A DNA stretch of 64,000 nt from Desulfobacterales bacterium (GTDB taxonomy: Bacteria; Desulfobacterota; Desulfobacteria; Desulfobacterales; JANQIE01): positions 1-64,000 of the forward strand of contig JANQIE010000071.1 of assembly GCA_028282295.1 (NCBI GenBank), written 5' to 3'. The notes beneath the pieces are model-generated. The model made no database searches, was not told the DNA's origin, and was given only the letters and a program-made list of their open reading frames with translations. Position numbers and translations under genes: made by a program. This document shows, piece after piece, positions 1 through 54,775 of this stretch; within the stretch, counting starts at the first letter, position 1, and every line of letters begins with the position of its first letter.

Positions 1-1410
1 CCGGTGTCGCCGCGTTGGGAAGTCAGACCGATCAAGACAAAGGACGATTATTACTATGTCACCGTCTCGCGCGCGACCGGCGAGGGCGCCGGGTTTTCGC
101 GAGATGCCGGCATGGATGATATTCGTCAGAAATTCAAACAGACCATAGTAAATAATTGGAATGCCATTATAAGAGGCGAAAATGTACTCCCGGTCGATCC
201 GGCAACCAGAAATGCCGCTCAAGCCCTGGTAGATCACATTGATTCGCTCGGTGATATTCGTTTTGGAAAAATTACAGAAAATCAGGGGGTAGAATTAAGG
301 CGATTGATTCACAATCTGGATGCTGTGAAAACTTCTTTCCCATCCAGCCTGATACCATTGCCAACCATGGCGACATTGATCGACATAGCGGAACGTTTCC
401 CGAAAATCATTGGAACCCCTCATAATAATTTGAGGAGTTTATTTCAGAAAATAAAACTCAATCAAATTGTTACCGCATCCCCGCATACGGCTGATGGACG
501 ATATGCTCTCAGTTATATTTTGTTCAGGAATTTTTGGAGAGCATTCAGTGATAACGATATCAGCATGGATGATGCCAGGAATTTTTTTAATGCCGTTAAC
601 CCCGACGGTATATACCTTCCTCGTTTCAAGCGGTTTAAGGAACAGATGAACACCGGCATGATTGATTTGATCGCAAGAGATAATCAATTAAGAACTGCTT
701 TCAGCAATTTGACGATCGCTCAGCAGCGCAACCTGGGTGTTTTGGATTATGCGGCCCAATCGTTTGTAAACAGAATGGCCGAACTTATGGATGATGTTGT
801 GCGAGACACGCTTAGGCGTAACGGCCTTCCTGATCCTGAAATTTTTGGCATGACGGGGCCGCTCATCAAAAAGATAGAATTTGTGGACGGTAACAGCCAA
901 GGCGGTTTTCATATTCCGAGTCAGGTTTTAACGCTTAATAAATTGTTACAAAACAATAGTGCGGCATTCGCTGCTGCCGCGTTTCATGAGGGATTTGGCC
1001 ACGGTGTCATGGCATTTTTGCGTAAATATGTCGACACGATCGCCGATGCTACCCGGAAAATGGACAACAAAGGAAAAGTTAAAAAATTAATTTCACAACT
1101 TTCAAGCCGGAAAAGAAAGATGCGGCGAATTTTATCCGATGTTCGTGACAATGAATTGTTCAAAAGTCTTTATCAGCAGTCCCGCTTGACCGGTTCGAGT
1201 GATTATCGTGGCGCAATATCTGAAAAAAATTTAAGCGATTTTATGGATCATATGTTTGCTCCAGGTGATACGATTGGCGGCATACCACGTGATACCTTAA
1301 AGCAAATATTGGGTTACCGGGCTTATATTCAATCTCTAAACGAAATCGATGCCCAGTATACATCGGCACGCATTTTAACCGAAACACCCATGTTTTTTCC
1401 GGATGGGTGA
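1..1410 (+). CDS. Hypothetical protein, probably 5'-truncated by the window edge; contains an HEGFGH motif
   Basis: Frame is open to the window edge; ORF 4..1410 starts at GTG without a visible RBS; motif AAFHEGFGHGVMAFL. Confidence 0.6.
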   Translation, partial: PVSPRWEVRPIKTKDDYYYVTVSRATGEGAGFSRDAGMDDIRQKFKQTIVNNWNAIIRGENVLPVDPATRNAAQALVDHIDSLGDIRFGKITENQGVELRRLIHNLDAVKTSFPSSLIPLPTMATLIDIAERFPKIIGTPHNNLRSLFQKIKLNQIVTASPHTADGRYALSYILFRNFWRAFSDNDISMDDARNFFNAVNPDGIYLPRFKRFKEQMNTGMIDLIARDNQLRTAFSNLTIAQQRNLGVLDYAAQSFVNRMAELMDDVVRDTLRRNGLPDPEIFGMTGPLIKKIEFVDGNSQGGFHIPSQVLTLNKLLQNNSAAFAAAAFHEGFGHGVMAFLRKYVDTIADATRKMDNKGKVKKLISQLSSRKRKMRRILSDVRDNELFKSLYQQSRLTGSSDYRGAISEKNLSDFMDHMFAPGDTIGGIPRDTLKQILGYRAYIQSLNEIDAQYTSARILTETPMFFPDG

Positions 1411-21834: not shown

Positions 21835-22195
21835 GGCGGGACAATTGCATTTGGAAATTATCCTGGAAGGTCATTGTCGTTTTGATTCGGGACCCCGGCT
21901 TTCGCCGGGGTGACACTTTTCTGGCTTTTATTTCGAACTACCGAATCAGCCGTACTTACGATCAGGGGCTGTCGGGCCAAAATGACCTGAATCCGGGCGC
22001 CAAAGCGTCCATTTCCGGATAGACACGAGATCGTTTATTGCCATGGCTTTTTTAATGTCCTTTCTTTACGACCGAATGGGATTATGTTAAAGGAATACGA
22101 TTTTTTGCGCGAATCCTGAGACGTGAAAGGATAGTGAAAATCAAGATTTATGAATTAAGATTTAAACATTGCGGATGGCGCGCGTTTATATGCTG

Positions 22196-22337
22196 GTGTC
22201 CATCCGGAAATAGTAGGTTTTGGTTCCCGGCAAGGCCCGAGCATTTTTAAAACCGCAGGCATAGCGAGCTATGTCGAGGATTTAAAAAATGCGAGAACGT
22301 CGCCGGGGACCAAAAGATGCTATTTCCGGATGGGCAC
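22196..22337. repeat. GTGTCCATCCGGAAATAG-type palindromic dispersed repeat, copy 1
   Basis: GTGTCCATCCGGAAATAG ... CTATTTCCGGATGGGCAC. Confidence 0.85.
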
Positions 22338-22378
22338 ATGCTGACAGCATACCTTGTTTCTTAATCATTATTGCAAAT

Positions 22379-22554
22379 TGGCGAGAACGCCGCCGGGGAC
22401 CAAAAGATGCTATTAACCCGGCAATGAAATACCTTTAAAAGTGTGATTCCGGCGAGCGCCGGAATCAAGCGTCAATCCTGGATGCCGGATCAAGTCCGGC
22501 ATGACGAAGGCTTACATATTTAGTCGCCGGTTTAATATTTCCGGATGGACACTA
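22379..22554. repeat. Interrupted half-copy of the GTGTCCATCCGG repeat containing another repeat
   Basis: GCGAGAACGCCGCCGGGGACCAAAAGATGCTATT, unrelated palindromic segment, then ATTTCCGGATGGACAC. Confidence 0.65.
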
Positions 22555-26692: not shown

Positions 26693-26776
26693 AGTGTCCA
26701 TCCGGAAATAGCATCTTTTGGCCCACGGCTGCGTTCTCGCATTGAACCAAAATCTACTATTTCCGGATGGACACTA
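26693..26776. repeat. GTGTCCATCCGGAAATAG-type repeat, short (about 84 bp) copy
   Basis: CTAGTGTCCATCCGGAAATAG ... CTACTATTTCCGGATGGACACTA. Confidence 0.85.
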
Positions 26777-26794: not shown

Positions 26795-27267
26795 TCAACG
26801 TCATTAACTTAAAACGGTGACCCAGGGCTTTTGCCTGGAGCCGACATCTGTAAGACGCCCTACCGTTGCGGCGAGCCGCCGGAACGGGCAATTTGCGCAT
26901 ATAGGGACATTTCCTGGATTCCCGCCTGCGCGGGAATCCAGGAGATATCGCAAAAATGCCTAGATGTCATTGTCGGGCTTCGACATGCAGTTTTGCTCAC
27001 ATTGTTGTTCATTTTTTCTTAGCTTGTGTCCATCCGGAAATGGTAGATTTTGGCTCAGGCCAAGGCCGCAGCGAGTTTGAAACCGCAGGCGTAGCCTTGC
27101 TACGTCGCAAGAACATGAATGGCTACGCCATTATTTCAAATTCGTGAGAACGCCGGCCTGGGCCAAAAGATGCCATTTCCGGATGGACACTAGCTTGACG
27201 GCTATGGGCTAAAAACCCTGCGCTACATCTCTTCGACTCATCGGATTGTTTAAGTTAATGACATTGA
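26795..27267. repeat. About 470-bp composite intergenic element bounded by TCAAYGTCATTAACTTAA inverted ends; contains a GTGTCCATCCGG repeat at 27025-27192
   Basis: Extended similarity to 42426-42893; inverted termini tcaacgtcattaacttaa / ttaagttaatgacattga. Confidence 0.75.
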
Positions 27268-42425: not shown

Positions 42426-42893
42426 TCAATGCCATTAACTTAAAGACAGTGGCTCAGGGCGTTTGCCTGTAGCCGACGTTTGTAAAACACCCTTACATTG
42501 TGGCGGGCCGCCGGAACGAGCAATTTGCGTATTTAGGGACATTTTCTGGATTCCCGCCTGCGCGGGAATGACGCCTAAACACGACGAGGCAAAACCTCCG
42601 TCGTCATTCCCGCGCAGGCGGGAATCCAGGAGATATCGCAAAAAGGCCGGAGTGTTTTTGTCAAACTTCGACATGCAATTTTGCTCAATTGTTATTCATT
42701 TTTTCTTAGCCTGTGTCCATCCGGAAATAGTAGATTCTGGTTCAGGCCAAGGCCGTAGCGAATTTGAAACCGCAGGCGTAGCCTTGCTACGTCGTAAGAA
42801 CGTGAATGGCTGCGTCATTATTTCAAATTCGTGAGAACGCCGGCCTGGACCAAAATCTACTATTTCCGGATGGACACAAGTTAATGACATTGA
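42426..42893. repeat. Second about 470-bp composite intergenic element with TCAATGCCATTAACTTAA inverted ends; contains a GTGTCCATCCGG repeat at 42713-42878
   Basis: Extended similarity to 26795-27267. Confidence 0.75.
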
Positions 42894-50351: not shown

Positions 50352-52919
50352 ATGAGCCGCGTAAAAGAAAGTAAAAACGAAAATAAAACCCCAAAAGCGC
50401 CTGACAAGCCGGAAGCTAGACCCAAAGAGCCCGCCAAAAAAGAGGCTCCGTCGCGCCCAAAAACAACGACCATGGAGTCCTCCGAGCAAAAGGCTAACAA
50501 TGTTAAAGGTGCGTCCGCAACCTATGATGCCAAATCAGGAAAGAGAGAAGGCAAGAAAGATCAATCTACGGACACCACCTCCGCGTCGCAGCAAACGAAG
50601 AAAACAGAAACCGCCCCCGCGAAGAGTTCTGACGCCACCAGGCCTGTTGAGCCGACAACCACGGCTAATGAAAAACAACCGGTGAAAACTTCCGCCACAC
50701 CAGCCACCGCAAGCGGCGCGAGCAGCGGTCCGCAAGCGTCATCCACGGCAACCGGCCCCGATTCAACGCAAACCGGTCAAAACGTAACAACGCCGTCGAT
50801 ATCAACCAGCGACACGGGCTCAGCGCAACCAGGGCCAAGCACCGCGACACTGGCCACCGCAAGTGGTACGACCAGCGGTACGACAAGCGGCACGACCAGC
50901 GCTCCGCAAGCGTCATCCACGACAACCGGCCCCGATTCAACGCAAACCGGTCAAAACGTAACAACGCCGTCGGTATCAACCAGCGACACGGGCTCAGCGC
51001 AACCGGGGCCAAGCACAGCGACACCGGCCACCACAAGCGGCACGACCAGTGCTTCGCAAGCGCCATCCACGGTAACCGGCCCCGATTCAACGCAAACCGG
51101 TCAAAACGTAACAACGCCGTCGATATCAACCAGCGACACGGGCTCAGCGCAACCAGGGCCAAGCACAGCGACGCTGATCTCCGCCGGCATCACGGACAGC
51201 GGGCAAGAAGCGCCAACTTCCGTTGCACCGACGAGCGGTACCGACACGGACACAGGCCAACAAGCTGCTACCGCCCCCGCACAAACCCACGGTTTTGTCG
51301 CCAACGCGCAGGCACCTCCGGCTGTGGGCGAACAGCCGAGCAGCTTGGCCGGATTACCGCTATTCGCTCAAGGAAAACATGATTCCCATGTTGTAGATGC
51401 AAACGACATTGCGCAAGGGGATATCGGGGATTGTAATCTTTTGGCGCCGTTAATATCAATCGCAGATCATAATCCGGACATAATACAAGACCTCATCACG
51501 GACAATGGTGATGGAACATGGGACGTGGCATTCCACGAGTTCGATTCACCCTATTCAACCAAGAATGTTTCGGTCATGCTGGATGAGCTAAATGATTGGA
51601 AGGGATCAAATTTGGCGGGTTTGGGTGATCGTGAGATTTGGGTGCGTGTAATGGAGGTGGCCTTTGCGAAACACGCCAATCACGATATCGCAAAAGGCGT
51701 TGATTCGGCACACGTCTTCCAGGCTATTTTAGGAAAGCAGAATACTTATGCACTTGCAATTAATGAACAAAGTTTGAATAATTTGGGATATAGCACTCGC
51801 AGTGGTTTTCACAATCCCATGGTTTATACGCCAGACAGACAACGGTTTCTGGAGATTAACCACTCCTATGGTGTAATCGATTTCAATCCGCAAACACAAA
51901 CATGGTTAATGTCAAACCCATGGGACGGAAATCGAACGTTCACTTTAACGCAAAGTCAGTTGCTGGACTTGGGAGGAGATATTGTTCTGGGGGACGCAGG
52001 TCCACGAAACAACACGCAAGAAGAATATTCTCATGTAGGTGGGTATTGGGAGAAAGTCAAAGGTCCTGCAACAAAAGATACGATTCAAGAGTTGTTTCCG
52101 GAAGTTAATAGAAATCTTCTGGACTGGACTTTCGGAATGGCAACGCAAAACGCCGCGGAAAATTCCATGGGGGTGGCCAAGATTGACGCATCGCGTGCAA
52201 ACGACATGTTGACCCTGAACAATATACTGGCCACCCATCGTACTGATTTCCATAACACCCTGAAGCTATTTGACGGTCCGCAGGGCGGTCGCATCGCCGA
52301 ATTGCGCCAGCGCGGTTTCAAACATGAACAAATCGAACGGTTTGTCGGTGATTTTACGATGCACCCCGGTCTTTTCGACACTAAACTGCTGGATAACATA
52401 ACGCTTAATTTAAAAAAACAGCCCAAGGAAAACTTCATTGATTTGTGGGAGCAGGGGGTGCACGGCCGGAACCTGGCCGTGCTGGCCAATGCCGAGGACG
52501 GTGGTTTGCTCGGTGAGCTGAACAAACGCAAACTCGGCACGCAGTCGCTGGCCACCTTGATCGGTCGCGCTGCCGGCGACGACGTATTACTCGATAATGC
52601 GGAAGTCGATCATCTGCAGGCATTTAATGATACCGCGAGCAAGCGCGCCAATGAGTGGGCTCAGAACCTTATCAGGGAGGACCTGCCGGTGCCGGCAATG
52701 ACCAAGGCCCTGGGCGATTCGGTCGTTGCAGCCATCATCAATGAACGCCACCTGGGCCATGAACGGATCGGGCGAATCGTCAAGTGGGCCTATGACGCTG
52801 CCGGCGGAAATTTGGACACGATGATTCAAAAACTCAACGAATACAACGAAAATGCGAGATCTCAAAAGCGCGGGGCGTTGCGCGCGGCGGTCGACAGCGG
52901 CCAGAATCCATTCACATAG
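50352..52919 (+). CDS. Calpain-like (C2 family) cysteine protease with Thr/Ser-rich tandem-repeat N-terminus
   Basis: Cys box AQGDIGDCNLLAPLISIADHNP; His box LEINHSYGVIDF; Asn box TWLMSNPWDGNRTF; RBS AGGAG. Confidence 0.8.
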   Translation: MSRVKESKNENKTPKAPDKPEARPKEPAKKEAPSRPKTTTMESSEQKANNVKGASATYDAKSGKREGKKDQSTDTTSASQQTKKTETAPAKSSDATRPVEPTTTANEKQPVKTSATPATASGASSGPQASSTATGPDSTQTGQNVTTPSISTSDTGSAQPGPSTATLATASGTTSGTTSGTTSAPQASSTTTGPDSTQTGQNVTTPSVSTSDTGSAQPGPSTATPATTSGTTSASQAPSTVTGPDSTQTGQNVTTPSISTSDTGSAQPGPSTATLISAGITDSGQEAPTSVAPTSGTDTDTGQQAATAPAQTHGFVANAQAPPAVGEQPSSLAGLPLFAQGKHDSHVVDANDIAQGDIGDCNLLAPLISIADHNPDIIQDLITDNGDGTWDVAFHEFDSPYSTKNVSVMLDELNDWKGSNLAGLGDREIWVRVMEVAFAKHANHDIAKGVDSAHVFQAILGKQNTYALAINEQSLNNLGYSTRSGFHNPMVYTPDRQRFLEINHSYGVIDFNPQTQTWLMSNPWDGNRTFTLTQSQLLDLGGDIVLGDAGPRNNTQEEYSHVGGYWEKVKGPATKDTIQELFPEVNRNLLDWTFGMATQNAAENSMGVAKIDASRANDMLTLNNILATHRTDFHNTLKLFDGPQGGRIAELRQRGFKHEQIERFVGDFTMHPGLFDTKLLDNITLNLKKQPKENFIDLWEQGVHGRNLAVLANAEDGGLLGELNKRKLGTQSLATLIGRAAGDDVLLDNAEVDHLQAFNDTASKRANEWAQNLIREDLPVPAMTKALGDSVVAAIINERHLGHERIGRIVKWAYDAAGGNLDTMIQKLNEYNENARSQKRGALRAAVDSGQNPFT
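50731..51180 (+). repeat. Three in-frame tandem repeats within the calpain-like gene
   Basis: CGCAAGCGTCATCCACGGCAACCGGCCCCGATTCAACGC... begins near 50731, 50905 and 51055 (174- and 150-nt spacing). Confidence 0.85.
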
Positions 52920-52921
52920 CA

Positions 52922-53067
52922 TGTGTCCATCCAGAAATAGCATCTTTTGGCCCCCGGCGGCGTTCTCGCATTTTTAAAATCCTCGAAATAGCACGCGATG
53001 CCTGCGGTTTTAAAAATGCTCAGGCCTTGCCGGGAACCAAAATCTACTATTTCCGGATGGACACTAG
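52922..53067. repeat. GTGTCCATCCGG-type repeat starting 2 nt after the calpain-like stop codon
   Basis: TGTGTCCATCCAGAAATAGCATCTTTTGG ... CCAAAATCTACTATTTCCGGATGGACACTAG. Confidence 0.85.
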
Positions 53068-53090: not shown

Positions 53091-53233
53091 TTTGATTCTG
53101 GACCCCGGCGTTCGCCGGGGTGACGAAGGTAACTTGTCGTTTTAATCCTGGACCCCGGCTTTCGCCGGGGTGACGGTGTCTGGTCCTGCGTTATTTCGCG
53201 AATCCCGGATCACCCGGCCTTCGCCGAGGTGAC
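53091..53233. repeat. Three successive REP-like GGACCCCGGCnTTCGCCGGGGTGAC units
   Basis: Direct reading: three GC-rich hairpins in a row, the last degraded. Confidence 0.75.
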
Positions 53234-53509: not shown

Positions 53510-53600
53510 TCACTTCCCTTGATTTAATATTAATGAACTCAAAGAGAATTTTATAGGTTCAATGTTAACTTTACTAAATTAATACAAAAGGAGGAACAAA

Positions 53601-54068
53601 ATGGGAGTAAGAAAAACCATGGCAAGCGCAACAGCCAATGCATGGAATATGGGCGGCGGCCCCGCCAGTGCGACCGCCAATGCGGTTGCAGGCGGCGGTG
53701 GTGCCCAAGCCACAGCTAAAGCCAGAGCAGGTGGTGGTGGTGGTGCCCGCGCCGCAGCTAAAGCCAGAGCAGGTGGTGGTGGTGCCCGCGCTGCAGCTAA
53801 AGCCAAAGGCCGTGGCGGTCGCCGTGGCGCCCGTGCCTCCGCCAAGGCAATGGGCGGTGGCGCTCAGGCCCAGGCAAGCGCCAGAGCCAAAGGTCGTCGT
53901 GGTCGCCGTGGCGGTCGCCGTGGCGCCCAGGCAAACGCGCAGGCTCAGAGCAACTTCAGAATGCCCAAGTTTTTCCGTAAAATGATGCAATCCATGCAGT
54001 CATTTTTTGCAAAAAGCAGCGCCAGTGCATCCGCAATGTCGGGAACCGATGCAGGTGATAGCGATTAG
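53601..54068 (+). CDS. Ala/Gly/Arg-rich repeat protein 1 with conserved C-terminal motif
   Basis: RBS AAAAGGAGGAACAAA; C-terminus FRMPKFFRKMMQSMQSFFAKSSASASAMSGTDAGDSD shared with 54335-54775. Confidence 0.85.
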   Translation: MGVRKTMASATANAWNMGGGPASATANAVAGGGGAQATAKARAGGGGGARAAAKARAGGGGARAAAKAKGRGGRRGARASAKAMGGGAQAQASARAKGRRGRRGGRRGAQANAQAQSNFRMPKFFRKMMQSMQSFFAKSSASASAMSGTDAGDSD

Positions 54069-54334
54069 GCACTGACCGTAGTTGCGTCTCTATCATGGGT
54101 TAAGCTGCTCCAAATTTCTTCCACGCCCTCGGCTACCTGTTCGATAATGAAAACCACCGAATTCTGGTAGCCGAGGGATGCAATTGATTTTCTTTCGATT
54201 CTTCCAGGCCGCAGATAAAAAGGACTTCTCCGACTTCTCCGGCGGATTGATCCCAATTTGTCATTTAGTATCTAACGTGAGTTAATTCGATTGAATATTC
54301 TTTTATTTTTAATCACAAAACAAGGAGGAGAGTA

Positions 54335-54775
54335 ATGCGGTGTAAGTGCAATGGACCTAAAGGTGGAATGTTCGAGGGCGGCGCCGCCGCTTCAGCCATG
54401 GCAATGGCTCCCGGATTCGGTGCCAATGCGTCTGCAAAAGCATCCGCCAATGGCGGTGGCCAAGCCGGGGCAGGTGCCGGAATCAATGGCGGCGGTGCAC
54501 GGGCCAATGCCATGGCATTTGGCGGTGGTGCGCAGGCCGGGGCCAGGGCATTTGGTGGTGGTGCGCAGGCCGGGGCCAGGGCATTTGGTGGTGGTGGTCG
54601 TGCCCAAGCTCGCGCCATGGCTAACGGTGGTGGTCAGGCCCAGGCACAAGCCGGCGGCGGATTTCGTATGCCCAAATTTTTTCGCCAAATGATGCAGTTT
54701 ATGCAATCATTCTTTGCAAGTAGTAGTGCTAGTGCCACTGCAATGTCAGGAACCGACGCGGGTGACTCCGATTAA
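54335..54775 (+). CDS. Ala/Gly-rich repeat protein 2 with conserved C-terminal motif
   Basis: RBS AAGGAGGAGAG; C-terminus FRMPKFFRQMMQFMQSFFASSSASATAMSGTDAGDSD. Confidence 0.85.
   Translation: MRCKCNGPKGGMFEGGAAASAMAMAPGFGANASAKASANGGGQAGAGAGINGGGARANAMAFGGGAQAGARAFGGGAQAGARAFGGGGRAQARAMANGGGQAQAQAGGGFRMPKFFRQMMQFMQSFFASSSASATAMSGTDAGDSD

What the first reader, a model, noticed from the sequence alone, without database searches (positions are those of the whole stretch)
53601..54775. Two adjacent paralogous Ala/Gly-repeat proteins with a near-identical 37-residue C-terminus
Both proteins end in FRMPKFFR[K/Q]MMQ[S/F]MQSFFA[K/S]SSASA[S/T]AMSGTDAGDSD, with 33 of 37 residues identical by my alignment. 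About 17 of the 33 identical residues use different synonymous codons, so the motif looks maintained by selection and not by recent copying. The N-terminal parts are diverged low-complexity repeats. Both genes have strong RBSs. I do not recognise this C-terminal motif from any named family. It could be a secretion, sorting, membrane-association or oligomerisation tag (inference).
Basis: partly seen in the sequence, partly recalled or inferred. Interest (0 to 1): 0.9.

Follow-up and report, generated by a model that had tools for sequence, protein, structure and literature searches.

The report
Orphan paired alanine-strand proteins, secretion-linked?
Two neighbouring bacterial genes make sister proteins, seen nowhere else we could search, built of alanine-rich beta-strand repeats, a conserved membrane-seeking helix and an acidic tail; the same rare design recurs in a protein beside the genome's injection-machine (type III secretion) genes, so they are probably exported parts of that system, though this is untested.

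Summary
In detail: ORFs 53601-54068 (P1, 155 aa) and 54335-54775 (P2, 146 aa) share a C-terminus with 33/37 identical residues, 17 of those by different synonymous codons. Both look like real genes. The motif is an orphan: nothing in Pfam, NCBIfam, PDB, 292 order / 395 phylum / 390 class genomes, pattern scans of GTDB and IMG/VR, phages or plasmids. The "tag on repeats" reading is only partly right: the repeats are a regular design too. AlphaFold gives both proteins eight short AxAxAxA strands joined by Gly turns, an amphipathic helix and a disordered acidic tail. Beyond the window, only four of 147 ORFs examined in this genome carry repeated AxAxAxA runs; the same four are among the top five for Met/Gln-rich hydrophobic helices: P1, P2, a 605-aa protein on contig C252 beside two HTHP-motif orphans, and a 331-aa protein on C170, the contig holding the type III secretion genes SctD/J/N/Q/R (SctC/V/U/T lie on C115). 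Best explanation (0.45): lineage-specific T3SS-associated exported proteins that work like harpins or accessory translocators. Main rival (0.27): a silk/amyloid-like matrix protein independent of T3SS. Neither export nor assembly is shown.

The parts
53590..53595 (+). Shine-Dalgarno sequence ggagga of P1 in an AT-rich leader
   Evidence: read directly
53601..54068 (+). P1 gene, 155 aa, pI 12.0, Ala 28% Gly 20% Arg 12%, no Cys
53622..53951 (+). P1 beta-repeat body: eight predicted strands (aa 8-16, 22-30, 35-43, 49-57, 62-71, 77-85, 89-97, 109-117) of AxAxAxA type joined by Gly-rich turns
   Evidence: AlphaFold2 mean pLDDT 72.3, pTM 0.61; three of five models 69-72, the other two 44-45; AxAxAxA excess
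53955..54065 (+). P1 conserved 37-aa C-terminus FRMPKFFRKMMQSMQSFFAKSSASASAMSGTDAGDSD; amphipathic helix aa 123-138 (53967-54014), then disordered acidic tail
54322..54329 (+). Shine-Dalgarno sequence aaggagga of P2 in an AT-rich leader
   Evidence: read directly
54335..54775 (+). P2 gene, 146 aa, pI 11.3, Ala 26% Gly 25%, two Cys near the N-terminus
54389..54658 (+). P2 beta-repeat body: eight predicted strands (aa 19-26, 31-37, 44-51, 56-63, 67-73, 78-85, 91-97, 102-108); 33-nt DNA period in the middle
   Evidence: AlphaFold2 single sequence, mean pLDDT 70.1 in the best model, 46-53 in the other four; repeats
54662..54772 (+). P2 conserved 37-aa C-terminus FRMPKFFRQMMQFMQSFFASSSASATAMSGTDAGDSD; amphipathic helix aa 114-127 (54674-54715), then disordered acidic tail
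50352..52919 (+). neighbour on the same strand: calpain-family (Peptidase_C2) protein with a long Thr/Ser/Pro-rich, presumably disordered N-terminal part; possible substrate of the same system (inference)
   Evidence: PF00648 E 4e-6, above the Pfam cut-off

Best explanation
P1 and P2 are an old tandem duplication of a lineage-specific, probably well translated protein that is exported by this genome's non-flagellar type III secretion system (T3SS) and works outside the cell like a harpin or accessory translocator. Shown: the duplication, selection on the C-terminus, the lack of detectable relatives, a near-complete set of T3SS genes in the genome, and recurrence of the same two-part design in a protein on a T3SS contig. 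Predicted by AlphaFold: the N-terminal body is a row of short alternating-Ala beta strands joined by Gly turns, then a helix. Inferred: the bodies stack into a sheet or fibre; the amphipathic Phe/Met/Gln helix binds a membrane or the growing assembly; the acidic disordered tail keeps the end soluble or is recognised by a partner. Two paralogues with different body charge (about +22 and +7) but one shared end could co-assemble or compete for the same site. Also inferred: the calpain-like and HTHP-motif orphans with long disordered N-termini are substrates of the same system.
For: T3SS: SctV 805 bits against a cut-off of 692, SctR 261 against 208.6, SctC, SctD, SctJ, SctN, SctT over their NCBIfam cut-offs, HrpB1/CdsG-like and weak HrpB2-like neighbours. 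On the same contig as SctD-R lies a 331-aa protein (C170:4129-5127, minus strand) with two Met/Gln-rich hydrophobic helices and GAEAVALASAQ-type alternating-Ala repeats. Of 147 ORFs from 14 stretches of the genome exactly four have five or more AxAxAxA runs (605-aa, P1, P2, 331-aa; 0 of 500 shuffles each), and these four are among the five best for Met/Gln-rich hydrophobic helices. P2's end aligns with FFPGMGRFFKQFMPAASANATAGAQAG of the 605-aa protein (1 of 2000 shuffles as good), which sits in a same-strand cluster with two HTHP-motif orphans. An 18-bp repeat family shared by the window and both T3SS contigs argues they are one genome. P1 and P2 get the same predicted architecture. No cluster of GGGAxAxAxA matches like this one was listed for 291 other genomes of the order.
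Against: P1/P2 are not in the T3SS locus but on another contig; no shared promoter motif was found. The helix and AxAxAxA measures were chosen after seeing the proteins, and some stretches were fetched because of the AxA pattern, so the 147-ORF ranking is not an unbiased test; C170 was fetched for an independent reason. P1's end aligns with a different stretch of the 605-aa protein (27 of 2000 shuffles), and the short FF core alone is not significant (361 and 113 of 2000). No T3SS signal predictor was run. AlphaFold confidence is moderate and uneven between models, and no solved structure resembles the fold. Both proteins are strongly basic, unlike harpins.
Confidence: 0.45

Rival explanations
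1. Surface or matrix protein: P1/P2 form silk-like or functional-amyloid-like beta fibres (like curli or Fap in behaviour) in the envelope or biofilm, with no tie to the T3SS; the C-terminal helix is the anchoring or nucleating end.
For: Regular AxAxAxA strands with Gly turns and 8-strand models; one of the three (insignificant) PDB hits of P1 is the amyloid FapC (E 2.2).
Against: No Sec signal visible in either sequence and no csg- or fap-like genes seen next to them (by reading); no significant structural match; the design recurs on the T3SS contig.
Confidence: 0.27
2. Intracellular basic scaffold: a nucleic-acid- or polyphosphate-binding, phase-separating low-complexity protein (P1 has GRRGRRGGRRG stretches), the conserved helix and tail mediating oligomerisation or membrane recruitment.
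For: pI 12.0 and 11.3, Arg 12% in P1.
Against: P2 lacks the Arg-rich stretches though it keeps repeats and end; the best conserved part is the hydrophobic helix and tail, not the basic part.
Confidence: 0.13
3. Two-component secreted peptide toxin or bacteriocin-like pair with an amphipathic membrane-active helix.
For: Two adjacent paralogues with an amphipathic cationic helix.
Against: No leader peptide, immunity protein or dedicated exporter recognised beside them (by reading); separate leaders and Shine-Dalgarno sequences; the helix is the end of a large patterned body.
Confidence: 0.06
4. Not a real protein: a GC-rich low-complexity repeat that is open by chance in several frames.
For: Other frames of the repeats are open too.
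Against: 17 synonymous codon differences against 4 amino-acid changes in the end, and two strong Shine-Dalgarno sequences.
Confidence: 0.02

Closest known systems
Harpins (HrpZ, HrpN, Hpa1; T3SS-secreted)
   Same: Gly-rich low-complexity protein of a genome with a T3SS, with a short alpha-helix; Hpa1 needs its alpha-helical motif to act as a translocator (PMC6123991); HrpZ2 has a predicted C-terminal pore-lining helix (PMC12854069).
   Different: Strongly basic (pI 11-12) where HrpZ2 is acidic (4.93, PMC12854069); predicted beta body where HrpZ2 is helix and coil; no match to any Pfam or NCBIfam family; secretion untested.
T3SS hydrophobic translocators (YopB/YopD type)
   Same: Hydrophobic or amphipathic helices in an otherwise soluble protein; the 331-aa protein of like design on the T3SS contig has two such helices.
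   Different: No sequence match; P1/P2 have one short helix; they are not in the T3SS locus.
Bacterial functional amyloids (FapC, curli CsgA)
   Same: Imperfect short repeats, strand-turn pattern, predicted all-beta body.
   Different: Ala-X alternation with Gly turns; no Sec signal or export genes seen; no significant structure match.
Silk fibroin-like Gly/Ala repeats
   Same: Alternating small residue in beta strands.
   Different: X positions are Arg, Lys, Gln, Asn, Thr; bacterial; a resemblance of pattern only (own knowledge).

Membership tests
Harpin | secreted through a T3SS | not testable with these tools
   the genome has the T3SS genes; export itself is an experiment
Harpin | glycine-rich | tested here: met
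   Gly 20% and 25%
Harpin | no cysteine, very few aromatic residues | tested here: inconclusive
   P1 has no Cys, P2 has two; aromatic residues 4-8%, most of them in the C-terminus
Harpin | acidic | tested here: not met
   pI 12.0 and 11.3; harpin HrpZ2 is reported at 4.93 (PMC12854069)
Harpin | sequence match to a harpin family model | tested here: not met
   no Pfam or NCBIfam family at E up to 10
T3SS translocator | encoded in the T3SS locus beside a SycD-type chaperone | tested here: not met
   P1/P2 lie on C106, T3SS genes on C115 and C170; no chaperone recognised beside P1/P2
T3SS translocator | membrane-active helix | tested here: inconclusive
   amphipathic helix predicted; membrane binding untested
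Functional amyloid (Fap, curli) | Sec signal peptide plus dedicated outer-membrane exporter | tested here: not met
   no hydrophobic N-terminal signal by reading the sequences, no fap/csg-type neighbours recognised
Functional amyloid (Fap, curli) | cross-beta fibre from imperfect repeats | tested here: inconclusive
   beta repeats predicted at moderate confidence; fibre formation untested

The most novel reading that the evidence does not exclude
A lineage-specific T3SS uses a new class of exported silk-like proteins, alternating-Ala beta-strand repeats capped by an amphipathic helix, to build an extracellular fibre or translocation platform for a set of orphan substrates (HTHP-motif and calpain-like proteins), in place of or beside classical translocators.
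Probability: 0.25. Interest if true: 0.8.

Novelty: new variant of a known kind. Interest (0 to 1): 0.52.

Why it matters
If the link holds, a T3SS in a little-studied environmental lineage carries an unknown class of exported structural proteins and a set of orphan substrates, so T3SS accessory parts can be built from a beta-repeat design not used by the studied systems. If it does not, the pair is still a clean natural example of an Ala-strand/Gly-turn beta repeat with a conserved helical cap, of interest as a self-assembling protein.

Tried and rejected
Motif search for relatives: all hits outside the genome were chance (out-of-frame or unrelated ORFs). The 'FRMPKFFR' of L018 (genome G081) is a 61-aa ORF overlapping a longer ORF in another frame. 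Shared promoter among the P1, P2, 605-aa, 189-aa, 331-aa and 168-aa genes: no better than dinucleotide-kept shuffles (the higher score used weaker nulls). Sigma-54 sites: one spurious hit. Rfam: none at 50-58 kb. Anti-phage and phage families: none. Structure searches: nothing significant. A shared 'MxxVK' start in several orphans was noticed by eye and left untested. A T3SS region of a known sulfate reducer could not be fetched for comparison.

Full report
Observation. The two ORFs, their coordinates and the 33/37 identity with 17 synonymous codon differences are exactly as described. The pair is an old duplication: synonymous sites are saturated by NG86 while only four residues of the end changed. 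Each gene has its own AT-rich leader and strong Shine-Dalgarno sequence, suggesting good translation of each (inference).

The motif is not a widespread tag. Searches of the genome itself, of 292 genomes of the order, 395 of the phylum and 390 of the class, two pattern scans of the GTDB collection, two of viral contigs, phages, plasmids and family libraries gave no relative. Limits: the family of the host genome has only this one genome held, so relatives in unsampled species remain possible, and the collection scans need a near-exact short seed.

Anatomy. The N-terminal bodies are strongly patterned: AxAxAxA runs occur 9 and 7 times where shuffles of the same letters give 0.3 and 0.2. AlphaFold2 gives P1 (with P2 as second row) eight strands of 9-10 residues, a helix at 123-138 and a disordered tail, mean pLDDT 72; P2 alone gives eight strands, a helix at 114-127 and a disordered tail, pLDDT 70 in the best of five models. 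The two predictions agree in architecture, but two of five P1 models and four of five P2 models are poor, and AlphaFold may favour beta repeats for such letters, so the fold is a prediction only. No solved or viral structure matches. The helix is significantly amphipathic.

Same design elsewhere in the genome. A DNA pattern for GGGAxAxA found, besides P1/P2, a cluster on contig C252: a 189-aa Ala/Gly/Pro protein, a 605-aa protein with 31 AxAxAxA runs and an FFPGMGRFFKQFMPAASANATA stretch, and two paralogous proteins (58% identical in the C-terminal domain) with an HTHP motif that resembles JAB/MPN metalloproteases by eye, without a Pfam match. The HTHP profile has five matches in this genome and none in 291 other genomes of the order. 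These proteins have long low-complexity N-terminal parts and some carry a Met/Gln-rich helix; the window's calpain-like neighbour has such an N-terminal part too.

Secretion system. That composition suggested T3SS substrates, so I searched for the machine. SctV scores 805 bits (cut-off 692) on C115 together with SctC, SctU and SctT, and SctR 261 bits on C170 together with SctD, an HrpB1/CdsG-like TPR protein, a weak HrpB2 match, SctJ, SctN and a SctQ-like ORF. The second, weaker matches of both searches (C255, C208) are presumably flagellar FlhA and FliP. On C170, in a run of minus-strand genes, is the 331-aa protein with Met-rich hydrophobic helices and alternating-Ala repeats. Ranking 147 ORFs from all stretches held, the AxAxAxA measure picks out the 605-aa protein, P1, P2 and the 331-aa protein alone, and the Met/Gln helix measure has the same four among its top five. 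The measures were made after the fact and the sample was partly fetched by pattern; C170 was not. The 18-bp repeat GTGTCCATCCGGAAATAG, 14 copies in the window, is also on C170, C115, C252, C194, C4 and C305, so a binning error is unlikely.

Mechanism. I take it as most likely (0.45) that P1/P2 are exported by the T3SS and act outside: beta-repeat bodies assemble, helices bind membrane or partner. By behaviour this would be like harpins, for which an alpha-helical motif is needed for translocator function (PMC6123991), but P1/P2 fail harpin membership on charge and sequence. The chief rival is a T3SS-independent silk- or amyloid-like matrix protein (0.27). A search for a common promoter did not tie the genes together.

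Novelty. An orphan family with a distinctive architecture; the nearest kinds are T3SS accessory proteins and functional amyloids; filed as a new variant of a known kind.

Noticed in passing
window 22009-22552, 26694-26774, 27026-27190, 42713-42877, 52923-53064: Fourteen copies of an 18-bp element GTGTCCATCCGGAAATAG, mostly as inverted pairs 60-150 bp apart, also on other contigs of the genome: REP/MITE-like family.
   Followed up: partly
window 53103-53233, 21893, 43039, 58176: Six copies of the palindromic repeat CCCCGGC(T/G)TTCGCCGGGGTGAC, three in a row just upstream of P1.
   Followed up: partly
L038:6284-8219, L051:532-1986, L055 (C305): Five-member orphan family with an HTHP motif and low-complexity N-terminal parts, not found in 291 other genomes of the order.
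   Followed up: partly
L089:10513-11440 (minus): Two small T3SS-locus proteins end alike (DTMKAIGRTV / DAMKAAGRNF); the 81-aa one is a weak needle-protein candidate (PF09392 E 0.03).
   Followed up: no
window 4-1410: 3' part of a large gene cut by the contig start, with an HEGFGH motif resembling a metalloprotease; possible further substrate.
   Followed up: no
L048:5472-10095 and L089:5398-9573 (minus): Two very large orphan ORFs (over 1500 and 1391 aa); the C170 one has no Pfam match, the C194 one was not searched.
   Followed up: no
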